Below are positions 23,754-40,620 of a DNA stretch of 64,000 nt, piece after piece (within the stretch, counting starts at the first letter, position 1; each line of letters starts with the position of its first letter). The notes beneath the pieces are model-generated. The model saw only the letters and a list, made by a program, of their open reading frames with translations, was not told where the DNA came from and did not search any database. This DNA comes from Paracyclopina nana (Eukaryota; Arthropoda; Copepoda; Cyclopoida; Cyclopettidae). Position numbers and translations under genes: made by a program. The stretch spans positions 2,981,001 through 3,045,000 of the forward strand of contig JAGUCH010000008.1 of the NCBI GenBank assembly GCA_019096065.1, written 5' to 3'.

Positions 23754-27955
<4,202 letters not shown>

Positions 27956-32925: not shown

Positions 32926-35225
32926 ATGATGGCACTCTGGTCTTGGTTGCCCCTCGTCCACCTCCTTTTGGGCCTCTATTGCAACTCTGTGTCTGCTCAG
33001 GCCCAAGTTGGGCCCAAAATCGAGGACAACCTCAAGTGTGTGTCTGGTTTCTGCCTGCCAACTCGCTACAAAAAACTGGAGACACCCATCACTGAGGGTA
33101 GATAAAATATGAAAGCTAAAAGAAAGCCATTTGCACAGTTTCACTTCCTAGGCACCAATTACGTTTCCATAGAGACCGACATCATGGATATCTTGGCAGT
33201 GAACGACAAGGAGTTTAGCGTGACGTTGACGATGTACTTCTCGGTGAAATGGGACGAGCCTCGCATTGAGACGAACAACACCGTGTCTGAGGGCCAGTGG
33301 ACTCCCATCGATTTGCAGTTCATGAACCAGCTGTGGGTGCCCAACATCTTCATCTACGACCTGCGAAGCTTCAAGGCCCTGGAAGTGCTCAAGAAGCTGG
33401 CTGGCGTGTGGATCGTGGAGGGCAAGCAGATCTACTACAACCAGGCGACCACCGTGACCTTTTCCTGCCCCATGAGGTTCGACTTGTACCCGCTGGACAG
33501 CCACGTGTGCAAGTTTCGCGTCGGCTCCACCAACTTGGACATCACGCGCATGAAGTTCTCCGAGACGGCCGTGAGCTACGACCCCAAAACGCGCAACACC
33601 ATCCTCGATTATGCCGTTGACATCGTGAAGCTTCGCGAGTCGGATCGCATCCTTCCCTACGGCGATTTGGGCAACTACAGCATCACTGGCATTGAGCTGC
33701 ACTTCACCAGGCACAAGCTGAAGTACATGTACATGTACTACTTGCCCTCAGGTGCAAATTCATTGCATTAATTTGAGCGTAGCGAAGCTGTTTTGGGATA
33801 ATCAGCACAAATAGTTATCGTACCCGCGCTAATTTAGAATCGTTCGCTAGAATAAGTACGCTCTAAATTAAGTCTCCCATTTTTAACGCTACCAAAAAAA
33901 AATTAGGTGCAACTAGATTTTGATGAAATCACTAGATTTTGATGCAAATCCTAGATTTTGATGCAAATCTCTAGAATTTGATGCAAATCTCTAGAATTTG
34001 ATGCAAATCTCTAGAATTTGATGCAAATCCCAGGGGGGTCTCGTAAGTGAGTTCTTGACGCAAGTTTTGCATGCTAAAATCACCAAATCTGTTTGTCTTA
34101 GCCTAGGTGGCGCTAGTAGTTCTTACTACATAGCGCGTGAGCTCAAGTGACGTGTCAGTCATGGAGGCAAGCAGGCTAATCTCACGCGTCTTCAACAGAG
34201 CTCCTAGATAAGTTCTGTCTTTTTTAAAAAAGTATGCAATTTGGGCACTTTTTGATAATTTAAGGCTGGTTATGGAAATTTTTGAAAGTGAAATCCACAG
34301 AATTCTATTGAAATTTTGTCTTGAAGCCTACCACAGCTCAGTCAGACTGTGTGCTATAGTAAAGCAGCGACAAGAACTCACCTTATTACTATAGATCATC
34401 TTGGCAAATCCTAGATTTTAATGCAAATTACTACATTTTGATGCAAATTACTAGATTTTAATGCAAATCTCAAGATTTTGATGCAAATCTCTAGATTTTG
34501 ATGCAAATTACTAGATTTTACAGTAAATCACTAGATTTTGATGCAAATCACTAGATTTTGATGCAAATCCTAGATTTTGATGCAAATCATAGATTTTGAT
34601 GCAAATTACTAGACTTTGATTCAAATGTCTAGAAATATCTAGACTTTGAGGCAATTCACTCAATTTCCCTTAGAAATCTATAGAAAGCAAAAGGCATGAT
34701 TGAACTTGAGATGTAAATGACAAATTTCCCAAGCAACCAGAGCAGTTTTGCACAGCTCCCCCCTTGGATAGCAAAATTCAAAAAATTGCATCATTTTCAG
34801 GCCTTTTTGTGGTGGTGTCTTGGGTCAGCTTTCTCGTGCCTCCAGATGTGATACCGGGACGTATGGCCATGCTGATCACCCTCTTCCTCGTGCTCATCAA
34901 TATCTTCAACACGGTGACGACCAACTCGCCCAACGCCGAGGGCATGAACGCCATCACCGCGTGGATGCTGGTCTGCATCTTGTTCGTGTTCGGTGCTCTG
35001 ATCGGCTACGCGTTCCTGCTGTGGAAGAAGAAAAAGTCGTGCCTGAAACGGCACCGCGTGCGGAAAATGACTGACGACGAGGCCAAGGCTCGCCTCACGA
35101 AAAAGGAGGACCGAAGGTCCAGAGTGGACGACTTTTTCTTCGTCTTCTTCCCTGCCCTGTTCCTGGCCTTCAACGTCATCTACTGGGCCACTTGCCTCAA
35201 CAAGTCGGCCTCCTCGCAAGGATGA
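32926..35225 (+). CDS. Cys-loop ligand-gated ion channel subunit 1 (ends at a leaky-type UGA)
   Basis: Pentameric ligand-gated channel subunit of the plasma membrane. Three exons join in frame: 32926-33097, 33152-33751 and 34801-35225, 398 aa to the first stop. A signal peptide (MMALWSWLPLVHLLLGLYCNSVSA) leads the extracellular domain, which has the Cys-loop C-PMRFDLYPLDSHV-C with 13 residues between cysteines. TM1 spans YYLPSG/LFVVVSWVSFLV across the second intron. TM2 begins PPDVIPGRMAMLITLFL. It has PGR where classical anion channels have PAR, so anion selectivity is plausible but unproven. The TM3-TM4 loop is short and basic. TM4 is followed by UGA-CUA-G and 79 more sense codons. AATAAA lies at 35752-35757. 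Ligand unknown; it belongs to a divergent arthropod-type group rather than classical GABA or glutamate receptors. Confidence 0.9.
33911..34650. repeat. Octamer-bearing 20-bp tandem repeats in a channel-gene intron
   Basis: Two arrays (about 33911-34030 and 34405-34650) of a unit like CTAGATTTTGATGCAAATCA. I count 14 exact ATGCAAAT octamers, at 33942, 33961, 33981, 34001, 34021, 34421, 34441, 34461, 34481, 34501, 34541, 34561, 34580 and 34599. The intervening DNA (34031-34404) has an AGGTGGCGC core at 34105-34113 but no repeat. All lie in the 1,049-bp second intron. Confidence 0.92.
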
Positions 35226-35465
35226 CTAGAAGAAGATCTTGGAGATCCGGTGCCGCCGCCCTTCGAGGATGCGGTCAACGTGCAGCCCCCCGGGCTGCCC
35301 CTGGGCATCTACACAAACCATTGGCATAGGACTGTCAACATGGCTCAAGCTGGACTGCTCGGCGGAACATGCAACGGCTTTGATGCGGGCGGCAGATGTC
35401 CAAGATCGACGGAATACATGCCAGACTTAGATTATGATCTACAGGGCATTTTCGAGGTGGAGTGA
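35226..35465 (+). CDS. Candidate stop-codon readthrough extension of channel subunit 1
   Basis: Directly after the UGA at 35223-35225, 79 sense codons run in the same frame to a TGA at 35463-35465. The extension starts LEEDLGDPVPPPFEDAV and ends DYDLQGIFEVE. It looks coding rather than random, being Pro/Gly/Asp-rich with no low-complexity runs. The stop context is TGA CTA G, the motif known for efficient readthrough in several animal genes. In a Cys-loop receptor the C terminus after TM4 is extracellular, so the extension would be an extracellular tail. Alternatives are an assembly error, a polymorphic nonsense codon or an unrecognised splice that skips the stop. Confidence 0.55.
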   Translation, partial: LEEDLGDPVPPPFEDAVNVQPPGLPLGIYTNHWHRTVNMAQAGLLGGTCNGFDAGGRCPRSTEYMPDLDYDLQGIFEVE

Positions 35466-36887
35466 ACACAAAAACTTGGTTATTATAACTCATATCAACG
35501 CGCAGAAGAGCATGCCTATTTAAGAAAAGTTGGCCAATGATTTTCAGATATTGTATCCCCTCTTTTTCGATTGGATATGATTTATATACACTTGATGATG
35601 GACTTTTTGTAAAAAGTACTACGATTACAGCAATGATGTTATATATCGATGTGTGTGTGAGAGTGCGTCGTACTTCTGCTATTATACTATGCGAGTACTA
35701 TTTCTAACATAGCAGTGAATATATACTGTGTAGTAGCTAGCTGTGTGAACGAATAAATGAAAACTAACCTCATGCACATGTGATGATAGGCATATCCCGA
35801 ACTTGCAGCTATGTAGCATTGAGATGGCCCAAGCTGTGCCTCTGATGAGTCGAGCAAACCACGGCTGTCACTTTTGGGAAGATCGAAGGATATGTAAGAG
35901 GACCAACCCTATTCTATCTCCTTATAGCGTTGTGTCCCGAAAAGAAGCCAACAAGCCTGATTAGTTTGAATTTACCCGGCAGCGGAGCCCTTGCATCTAG
36001 AAAAAATATTGCTTTTATCAATGAGGATCCAAATGAGACCTATTTATGGCATAAAAGTGAAAGCCCAAAAGTCCCAGGACACGAGCACTTTAAGAAGATG
36101 GGGCATTATTCGAAGTGTGGCGTGCAATCAATCCGATCTATTCTCTGATCACATGCCTGCATTAGTACACACTTCTATGTTATGGTTTTCGACTTTCAAA
36201 CGTGTACAAGCACTACTACAAGGCCACCAAGGAAGCCATCATCAAATAAAGCAACGCCGGTCTCGGACATCAAGGGTGAAATATTATGACCTCTTTGCCA
36301 ACGATGGCCACTTCATGTGTGAGCTTAGCCAACAAGATCTACGCTCCAAATGTACTACTATCTTGCTGCAAAAGCATGTTTTGCCACTTAGGTTGGGGCA
36401 ATCACGAGCACCGAGCTAATTTCGCCTTTCACTTTTCGCAACGAAAACGTGACTACATACAGTGGCAATCATTCGCTTTTTTTCAAACGGGGGAAAATGC
36501 ATCCAAAGGCAATCGCACAATCAGGCTCTTATGGGTGTAAGAGCAATGCATAAAACGTATTTGACAAAATATGAGGGACCGAGCTAGACCAACTGGGCAA
36601 TCAAAGATAAGAGGCAGTTAGGAAATAAAATACATACTGCAATCCAGTACATACTACGAGTATCGGTCCAAAAATTCCTGAGCCTGGGAAAACTGTAGCA
36701 GCAGCAGAACAGTAATTTTCACAAAATCCAACATATTAACACCGGTTTCAAATTGAGCCATACAATAAAATTGACCAATGGCCCTTGCAAAAAAGCCCAG
36801 TCTGTATTAGGCTCAAGGCATGAATATTTGATTGCGTAATAGATATACAGAACAAAGTTAGAGTAGTGGGCTCAGTCGCTGTTCAAA
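35466..36887. other. Spacer between the two channel genes
   Basis: Begins with the 3' untranslated region of channel subunit 1 (AATAAA 35752-35757). The rest has several frames of up to 142 codons (35930-36540, +) without domains or splice support. No RNA gene seen. Confidence 0.5.
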
Positions 36888-38214
36888 ATGCTGACCATTA
36901 GAACTCCGCTTGGGCCGATAATTTTCTTTATAATTTGCCACCTTTTTCAAGAGAAGGTCGAAGGCTTGGATTTGTGCTCAGTGCCTGTGGACAAGCCTAA
37001 AATCTGCACAACTCGTGAAAACTACTCAAGCAACGATGCTCCTTTACCAAGGCCATTTTTGGTAGAGCCCTACCTTGAAGTGCGAGATATTGTTGATTTT
37101 GACCAAAACAGCAACACCATCACGATCGTCATTAGAACTCTTCTTTATTGGAACGATACGAGCATCAAAATAACTGGCCCAAATCCCGAGTAAGAATTTC
37201 GCAGAGCAAAATACGAATCATCGAATTTTCCCCATTTTAGAAATGTCTCCGATTGGTACCTGGTGACAATTGAAGATGCCAGAGAAATCTTCCACCCTGC
37301 CCTGAATTTCTTCAAAGCCATCAAAATTGAAAGATACCACACGTTTGGAACTGAGCGAGGCTTCACATTTTGGCTGAGCAGAGATAGCTTTCTGAGCTAT
37401 GAAGAAATGCTACAGTTGAAGTTTTACTGCCAGATGAATTTTATCGATTTTCCTTTCGATACTCATATCTGCGATGTGCATTTTTTCGAGCCTGACAATG
37501 TTTGCGATGAAGAGCTTTCGTTTCTTCCCGTTACAGTCATGTATGAAGACCAATCTTCAAATGAGCTGAACACAACAATCAATGTCACTGATTCGCATTT
37601 GCCCTTCAATATCTACATAGAACCAGTTGCAGGATTTCACACAACCAACATTGATTTTCAGGCTTGCACAACTGGAGTGAGAATGACGCTCACCAGAAAA
37701 TCTCTTGGCCTATTGATTGGAGGATACTACTTGCCCACAGCAGCTTTCTCCATTTTGTCCATGATTTCGTTTTTCATCAACCCTGACACAGTAAAAAAAA
37801 TTATTCCATTCGGAAATTGCAATCTGTTTGTGAACTGTGTGTACTTTTCTCTTCTTCAAGGTTCCTGGTAGGATGGGAATGTTGGTAACTTTGTATTTGA
37901 TAGCAGCCAATGTCTACAACTCGGTGAAAGCACCACCTGGCAGAGGATTCAGCTACATTGAAACTTGGATGATCGGAACTCAGTTCCCGATTTTGCTCGC
38001 ACTAATCGAGTATGGCATTGTTTTGGCATGGAAACGATGGCACAAGGAAAAGGCCAAAGTCTCTGTGGTTGTGTCTGAGCAAAGAAAGCAGCAGCCTTAT
38101 AAGGCAAAAATGTCATTAGATGACAAAATTAAGCTCATTGACCTGGCAACATTTTACCTTTCGCTTGCTTTCTTTGTCATCTTCAACATTTTTTATTGGG
38201 CCCTGGTGCCGTGA
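36888..38214 (+). CDS. Cys-loop ligand-gated ion channel subunit 2
   Basis: A second pentameric channel subunit, in tandem with the first. Three exons join in frame: 36888-37189, 37241-37790 and 37861-38214, 401 aa. The N terminus is a signal peptide (MLTIRTPLGPIIFFIICHLF). The extracellular domain has the Cys-loop C-QMNFIDFPFDTHI-C. TM1 is near LLIGGYYLPTAAFSILSMISFF. TM2 starts PDTVPGRMGMLVTLYLI; the second intron falls just before VPGR. TM4 (LATFYLSLAFFVIFNIFYWALVP) ends the protein with almost no tail. It shares the PGRM TM2 signature with subunit 1, so the two probably arose by an old tandem duplication. The sequences are otherwise strongly diverged and their introns lie at different positions. 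AATAAA at 38253-38258. Ligand and ion selectivity unknown. Confidence 0.9.
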
Positions 38215-39532: not shown

Positions 39533-40001
39533 CCCCACTACGCAAATTTTTATTAGGCTGCTCCTTGATCTCGCCTATGACTAACTTGATCTCAATGGTG
39601 CCAGAATTCATGGAGATCTAGTACAATACGCCTAACTAGATCTCGCAAGAAATCTAGATTTTTGTAGTCAGTTTGTAGTTGACTAACTTGATCTCAATTA
39701 TAGTTATAGTCAAGAAATCATTGAGATTTCTCAAGAGATATAGTACTATCCTAAGACTAGATCTCACACAAGCTTGTTCTCTGTAAAAAGCCTTTAACTT
39801 TATCTCAAGAGATATAGTGCTTGTCAAAAAAAACCGTTTGACCAATCAGAAGCTGATGCCAACAGCCAATCACAGCACACAGTTTACGCGGAATCTAACC
39901 GTCGGCAAAGGGCATTCCCACCATTCCGTCACTACGAGGCGGACGAGCTCGGCGCTGCCGAAATCGACTCGGGAGCCGGCCAATTTTGGTTTTTGGACTA
40001 C

Positions 40002-40620
40002 GGGAAAGACAATTAAGTTTGGATTCGAATAAGACAAGCTCAGGGGCCTTGGACTTTGGCAAAAACTCAGGCTTGGAGACTACGAGCTCAGCGCTGCTGA
40101 AATCAACTCGGAGCCGCCAATTTTGGACTACGGGAAAGACAAGTTTGGATTCGAATAAGACTAGCTCAGGGGCCTTGGACTTTGGCAAAAACTCAGGCTT
40201 GGAGACTATGAGCTCGGCGCTGCTGAAATCAACTCAGAGCCGGCGAATTTGGACTACGGGAAAGACAAGTTTGGATTCGAATAAGACAAGCTCAGGGGCC
40301 TTGGACTTCGGCAAAAACTCAGGCTTGGAGACTACGAGCTCAGCGCTGCCAAAATTGACTCGGGAGCCGGCCAATTTTGGACTATGGGAAAGACAAGTTT
40401 GGATTCGAATAAGACAAGCTCATCAGGGGCCTTGGACTTCGGCAAAAACTCAGGCTTGGAGACTACGAGCTCAGCACTACCGAAATCGACTCATGAGCCG
40501 GCCAATTTTGGACTACGGGAAAGACAAGTTTGGATTGGAATAAGACAAGCTCAGGGACATAGAGCCGGCCATTTTGGATCTCAATCTTGCAAAAACTTGG
40601 ACTTTGGCAAAGACAAGATA
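40002..40620. repeat. Minisatellite, about 126-130-bp unit, about five copies
   Basis: Units restart near 40002, 40131, 40259, 40387 and 40517, each beginning with GGGAAAGACAA followed by TTTGGATT(C/G)GAATAAGAC. An open frame runs through 39986-40543 because the first units are 126 bp long. Later units shift frame, so I do not call it a gene. Confidence 0.85.

What the first reader, a model, noticed from the sequence alone, without database searches (positions are those of the whole stretch)
35223..35465. Probable programmed stop-codon readthrough in a Cys-loop channel
Channel subunit 1 ends in TGA followed by CTAG, the sequence context repeatedly linked to efficient readthrough in animal genes. 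Then come 79 in-frame sense codons to the next TGA. Chance of no stop over 79 codons is roughly (61/64)^79, about 2 percent, before considering the context. The product would be a second isoform with a long extracellular tail after TM4, which is rarely described for pentameric channels.
Basis: partly seen in the sequence, partly recalled or inferred. Interest (0 to 1): 0.85.

Follow-up and report, generated by a model that had tools for sequence, protein, structure and literature searches.

The report
Likely stop-codon readthrough in channel gene
A neurotransmitter-receptor-like channel gene from an arthropod-like animal ends in a leaky type of stop signal followed by 79 protein-like codons, so some copies of the channel probably carry an extra outer tail; this is a known trick seen in an unusual kind of gene and still needs an experiment.

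Summary
A Cys-loop channel subunit (three coding exons, 398 aa) stops at TGA 35223-35225, followed by CTAG, then 79 open codons to TGA 35463-35465. The open frame alone is weak evidence: P = 0.06 for the tail's own composition, 0.008 for pooled 3' flanks of sister genes. But the tail looks coding: its GC (0.565) and codon score exceed those of all 14 sister-gene 3' flanks compared and lie within the coding range. The 15 sister-gene ends that I could read stop 2-29 residues after TM4, none with CTAG. The tail has no second match in this genome. No good splice bypass, SECIS match or downstream RNA structure was found. UGA-CUAG is an experimentally tested readthrough signal (human cells). Best explanation: UGA readthrough giving a minority isoform with an extracellular, probably disordered tail (0.7). 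Rivals: recent nonsense change or sequence error, unseen splicing, stop-codon editing, chance. Conservation could not be tested: no relatives were reachable. It is a new member of a known kind. Side finding: this genome's cytosolic malate dehydrogenase has a 17-codon in-frame extension after its stop ending in SRL, reminiscent of the peroxisomal readthrough form of human MDH1.

The parts
32926..33097 (+). coding exon 1 of the Cys-loop subunit (signal-peptide-like start); ends in phase 1
   Evidence: read from the sequence; joins in frame with exons 2 and 3; start codon not verified by transcript
33152..33751 (+). coding exon 2: ligand-binding domain and start of M1
   Evidence: PF02931 E 8.4e-18; PDB relatives; acceptor and donor at the 97th and 92nd percentile of window AG/GT sites by a generic score
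34801..35222 (+). coding exon 3: rest of M1, M2, M3, M4 and 12 residues after the FNVIYW motif
   Evidence: PF02932 E 2.3e-11; family matches across the genome; translation
35223..35225 (+). first stop codon, TGA
35226..35229 (+). CTAG, the 3' part of the UGA-CUAG readthrough motif (also the first bases of the tail)
   Evidence: motif tested by mutagenesis in PMC4132726 (abstract and passages)
35226..35462 (+). 79-codon tail; no Pfam match, no second match in the genome
   Evidence: composition and codon tests
35463..35465 (+). second stop codon, TGA
35752..35757 (+). AATAAA, likely polyadenylation signal; would give a 3' UTR of roughly 300 nt after the second stop
   Evidence: pattern match; use not shown
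35175..35226 (+). predicted hairpin that pairs the UGA with upstream coding sequence (35175-35181 with 35220-35226)
   Evidence: z -3.2 for a 61-nt stretch chosen after seeing the hairpin, -0.7 for a 101-nt stretch; significance doubtful

Best explanation
The gene encodes a Cys-loop (pentameric ligand-gated) channel subunit whose UGA stop, in the UGA-CUAG context, is decoded by a near-cognate tRNA in a minority of translations. The ribosome then adds 79 residues and stops at the second UGA. The main product is the 398-aa subunit; the minor one carries an 80-residue addition (the residue at the UGA plus 79) after TM4, on the extracellular side, probably disordered, with two cysteines (eight residues between them) that could pair. 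Shown here: the gene, the stop context, the open frame, its coding-like composition, and the lack of a good splice alternative. Inferred: readthrough itself, its rate, the topology and the effect of the tail. If subunits joined at random into homopentamers, 5% readthrough would put at least one tail on about 23% of channels and 30% on about 83%, so a low rate could mark many channels, near the post-M4 region known to influence gating in this family (recalled).
For: UGA-CUAG drives about 7-31% readthrough in four mammalian genes in HEK-293T cells, and UGA-CUA alone 1.5% (PMC4132726, abstract and passages). Tail GC 0.565 and codon score -0.007 against at most 0.41 and -0.35 in 14 sister-gene 3' flanks; the score lies within 63 confirmed coding segments (6 of 63 lower). 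Of 20,000 simulations with the tail's composition, 0.03% were both stop-free and at least as codon-like; the tail frame scores best of six over its whole length. Fourfold-site GC 27 of 40, CDS 144 of 183, nearby non-coding GC 0.35. 15 of 15 readable sister-gene ends stop 2-29 residues after TM4, 0 of 15 with CTAG. Splice sites that would remove the UGA score poorly. No SECIS match.
Against: No relatives: conservation untested (searches found none in prokaryote and viral collections, where none was expected). Codon-position base heterogeneity of the tail is borderline (P 0.061). In the tail's second half alone a reverse frame scores higher than the sense frame. GC3 (47 of 79) is lower than in the CDS (325 of 398, p 4e-5), though fourfold-site GC does not differ significantly (p 0.15). 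4 of 9 other TGACTAG sites in the window also precede 65-97 open codons. No stable downstream structure (none needed for this motif). The abundance of readthrough is documented for Pancrustacea; that this animal belongs there is not established.
Confidence: 0.7

Rival explanations
1. Recent nonsense substitution, polymorphism or assembly error: the tail was an ordinary C-terminus until recently, or still is, and the UGA is not read through.
For: It leaves the same coding-like signature downstream; PMC5100048 names recent nonsense changes and sequencing errors as false sources of readthrough signal (passages).
Against: The 15 readable sister genes end close to TM4, so the first stop lies at the family's usual end. 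A random nonsense change would meet CTAG about once in 421. GC3 already differs from the CDS. PMC5100048 uses an estimate of 17 recent nonsense changes in D. melanogaster against some 900 readthrough stops (passages).
Confidence: 0.12
2. Alternative splicing removes the UGA, or the tail is an alternative last exon, for example exon 2 joined to an acceptor at 35229 (phases agree), giving a truncated subunit without membrane helices.
For: The exon 2 donor and the 35229 acceptor are both phase 1.
Against: The 35229 acceptor is at the 48th percentile of all AG sites in the window, against 96-97 for the two real acceptors; the only GT after TM4 (35204) is at the 76th percentile; the one strong acceptor in the tail (35444) would keep only its last 6 codons. 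The weights were generic and recalled, not trained on this genome.
Confidence: 0.07
3. A-to-I RNA editing turns UGA into UGG (Trp) in some transcripts.
For: A35225 is predicted paired with U35176 (probability 0.95-0.98) in a hairpin. Invertebrate ion channels are classic ADAR targets (recalled).
Against: The outer helix is only 7 bp, and a 5' neighbouring G is disfavoured by ADARs (recalled). It would not explain CTAG.
Confidence: 0.03
4. The open frame is an untranslated chance stretch in a GC-rich start of the 3' UTR.
For: Open by chance in 6% of sequences of its own composition; GC-rich stretches elsewhere in the window also give long open runs after TGACTAG.
Against: None of 14 sister-gene 3' flanks reaches its GC or codon score; CTAG is an extra coincidence.
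Confidence: 0.07
5. Selenocysteine insertion at the UGA.
For: The stop is UGA.
Against: No SECIS family among Rfam matches at E up to 10 in 34800-37000.
Confidence: 0.01

Closest known systems
UGA-CUAG readthrough genes OPRL1, OPRK1, MAPK10, AQP4 (PMC4132726, abstract and passages read)
   Same: UGA followed directly by CUAG; two of the classes are membrane proteins (opioid receptors, aquaporin); no downstream structure needed
   Different: Those have experimental readthrough and vertebrate-wide conservation with extensions of 13-34 residues in the passages read; here neither is available, and the extension is 79 residues on a pentameric channel subunit
Abundant readthrough genes of Drosophila and Anopheles (PMC5100048, passages read; Jungreis 2011 not held, nothing seen)
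   Same: TGA with a following C preferred; coding-like second ORF in an arthropod-like genome
   Different: Those rest on multi-species PhyloCSF evidence; taxon of this animal and conservation are unknown
Non-neuronal chloride channel subunits CG7589, CG6927, CG11340 of Drosophila (PMC4938653; search-listing abstract and one passage seen)
   Same: Cys-loop subunits; the M2-M3 stretch resembles them from memory only
   Different: Orthology not tested; no reference sequences were at hand

Membership tests
Stop-codon readthrough gene, UGA-CUAG class | UGA followed immediately by CUAG at the end of a real coding frame | tested here: met
Stop-codon readthrough gene, UGA-CUAG class | Second ORF has protein-coding character | tested here: met
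   Single-genome composition and codon tests; position-heterogeneity test only borderline (P 0.061)
Stop-codon readthrough gene, UGA-CUAG class | Stop codon and second ORF conserved across species | not testable with these tools
   No relatives in reach; searches returned no relative
Stop-codon readthrough gene, UGA-CUAG class | Extension not explained by splicing or SECIS | tested here: inconclusive
   Generic splice scores low; no SECIS match; no transcript data
Stop-codon readthrough gene, UGA-CUAG class | Measured readthrough (reporter, ribosome profiling or peptides) | not testable with these tools
   experiment needed
Cys-loop pentameric channel | Ligand-binding and transmembrane Pfam domains in one frame | tested here: met
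   PF02931 65 bits (cut-off 26), PF02932 44.8 bits (cut-off 28.1)
Drosophila CG7589/CG6927/CG11340 group | Orthology by tree | not tested
   no reference sequences; resemblance recalled

The most novel reading that the evidence does not exclude
Readthrough acts as a stochastic stoichiometry switch in a pentameric channel: a selected UGA-CUAG keeps the long subunit at a set minority, so that most tagged channels carry a single extracellular tail that alters gating at the post-M4 region or tethers the channel outside the cell.
Probability: 0.15. Interest if true: 0.75.

Novelty: new member of a known kind. Interest (0 to 1): 0.45.

Why it matters
If the tail is made, a pentameric receptor gains a second subunit form without a second gene or splice variant, and the readthrough rate sets how many of the five subunits carry it. 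In my literature searches I saw no report of natural readthrough in a Cys-loop channel: searches returned 0 papers, only listings in which none was evident by title or abstract start. The library holds open-licence papers only, and searches did not require the readthrough term. It would also be an invertebrate UGA-CUAG case in a gene that annotation would end at the first stop.

Tried and rejected
Downstream RNA stem-loop as the signal: not supported (three downstream stretches, z -0.16, 0.68 and 0.15). SECIS: no match. Tail homology: no Pfam family, one PDB match at E 0.15, no second match in the genome. Relatives in prokaryote and viral collections: none. Species: not settled. Chitin_bind_4 gave 75 matches; PBP_GOBP, OS-D and Pacifastin gave 0, but the tool says such zeros are not proof because no control genome rang. 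One phosphagen-kinase exon matched a two-domain arginine kinase and a taurocyamine kinase best. Structure: exon 3 plus tail was folded alone (mean pLDDT 58.3; blocks over the tail 32-44), too poor for a fold search, so none was made.

Errors made and corrected: the first TM4 pattern found nothing. In one search minus-strand loci were read in the wrong direction and two stretches in the wrong frame; redone. Of 30 kinase loci, 23 without an in-frame stop were used as coding training. Rows left out of the flank comparison (n = 14): L001 and L002 (the gene itself), L017 and L020 (second views of genes already counted). One search needed longer flanks and kept 12 (L006 and L015 fell out). L009 lacked flank and counts only among the 15 gene ends. 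Terminal exons of the remaining matches (52 matches, several exons of one gene among them) were not located. Searches were made for the check.

Full report
What is there. The window lies in a 92-Mb genome of an arthropod-like animal (G000:C8:2981001-3045000; 75 Chitin_bind_4 matches; species not settled). Coding exons 32926-33097, 33152-33751 and 34801-35222 join into a 398-residue Cys-loop channel subunit with the ligand-binding and membrane domains of the family. It stops at TGA 35223-35225. CTAG follows at once, and the frame stays open for 79 codons to a second TGA at 35463-35465.

Is it more than chance? The open frame alone is modest evidence. Simulated sequence with the tail's own composition is open 6.0% of the time, sequence with the pooled composition of 12 sister-gene 3' flanks 0.76%. 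CTAG occurs once per 421 bases in the window. Four of the nine other TGACTAG sites in the window are also followed by 65-97 open codons, so motif plus open frame should not be over-read.

The composition says more. In 14 sister genes of the same genome the 237 nt after the stop are AT-rich (GC 0.31-0.41, codon score at most -0.35). The tail has GC 0.565 and a score of -0.007, inside the range of 63 confirmed coding segments (mean 0.24, minimum -0.20; 6 of 63 at or below the tail). Of 20,000 simulations of the tail's composition, 0.03% were both stop-free and at least as codon-like; over its whole length the tail's frame scores best of the six. GC at fourfold sites is 27 of 40, near the CDS (144 of 183) and far from nearby non-coding DNA (0.35). 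GC is about 0.58-0.62 over the first 180 nt, 0.45 in the last 60 nt of the tail, and 0.28-0.40 after the second stop.

Results that do not help. Base composition by codon position is only borderline (P 0.061). In the second half of the tail one reverse frame scores above the sense frame. GC3 is 47 of 79 against 325 of 398 in the CDS (p 4e-5), while the fourfold-site difference is not significant (p 0.15). A lower GC3 would suit a rarely translated extension better than a C-terminus cut off very recently, but this is a weak argument.

Family context. Fifteen sister genes whose last exon could be read end 2-29 residues after the TM4 motif FNxxYW; the in-frame runs after their stops are 0-55 codons, and 0 of 15 have a CTAG context. 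One of the fifteen is the neighbouring subunit in this window. The subunit in question ends 12 residues after the motif. So the first stop is at the family's usual end and the tail is an addition particular to this gene; a search of the genome with the tail found only itself.

How would it be translated? UGA-CUAG is the signal shown by mutagenesis to drive about 7-31% readthrough in four mammalian genes in human cells; UGA-CUA alone supports 1.5% (PMC4132726, abstract and passages). A review gives about 4% for the bare consensus (PMC4973966, passages). Most insects tested and Daphnia have abundant readthrough genes, with a preference for TGA and a following C (PMC5100048, passages). No structure is predicted downstream; in one Drosophila gene a downstream stem-loop is essential (PMC13170385, passages), but the UGA-CUAG genes did not need one. 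Splice routes that avoid the UGA score poorly, with the caveat that the weights were generic. No SECIS match was found. The UGA lies in a predicted hairpin with upstream sequence, which leaves A-to-I editing as a minor rival.

What the tail would be. With a signal-peptide-like start, an outer ligand-binding domain and four membrane helices, the C-terminus faces outward (inference from the family). The tail is hydrophilic, proline-rich at its start, has two cysteines with eight residues between them and an acidic end, and is modelled without confident structure (pLDDT about 32-44, single-sequence model). In random homopentamers a 5% rate would put at least one tail on 23% of channels.

Does this genome show readthrough elsewhere? 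One lead: its cytosolic malate dehydrogenase (best PDB match 'Malate dehydrogenase, cytoplasmic', E 2.7e-34) stops at TGA GGA and continues in frame for 17 residues ending in SRL before TAG TAG. Human MDH1 makes a peroxisomal form by readthrough (PMC4973966, passages). That SRL is a peroxisomal signal variant is recalled. The stop context here is not CTAG, and nothing was tested.

Verdict. 'Programmed' remains unproven without relatives or expression data. As a phenomenon it is a known kind; for the host gene, a Cys-loop channel, I saw no report in the searches made (listings only).

Noticed in passing
L065 (match G000:C3:3280769-3281335, +): Cytosolic malate dehydrogenase ends ...EVCSA at TGA GGA and is followed in frame by 17 codons ending in Ser-Arg-Leu, then TAG TAG; this resembles the peroxisomal readthrough form of human MDH1, but with a different stop context.
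   Followed up: partly
36867-38214: A second, divergent Cys-loop subunit lies just downstream on the same strand; its Pfam matches are below the cut-off but it matches exon 3 of subunit 1 and ends 4 residues after TM4.
   Followed up: partly
33913-34029 and 34404-34626: Two arrays of a 20-bp tandem repeat (5.9 and 11.3 copies) lie inside intron 2 of subunit 1.
   Followed up: no
39943-40556: A 126-bp tandem repeat of 4.7 copies that also reads as an open frame.
   Followed up: no
24464-24719: Another TGACTAG on the + strand with 83 open codons after it but only 6 before it; no gene was assigned there.
   Followed up: no
L061 and L062 (G000:C8:2693723-2696693): Phosphagen kinase exons; the one compared (L062) matches a two-domain arginine kinase and a taurocyamine kinase better than the single-domain arginine kinases in the PDB.
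   Followed up: partly
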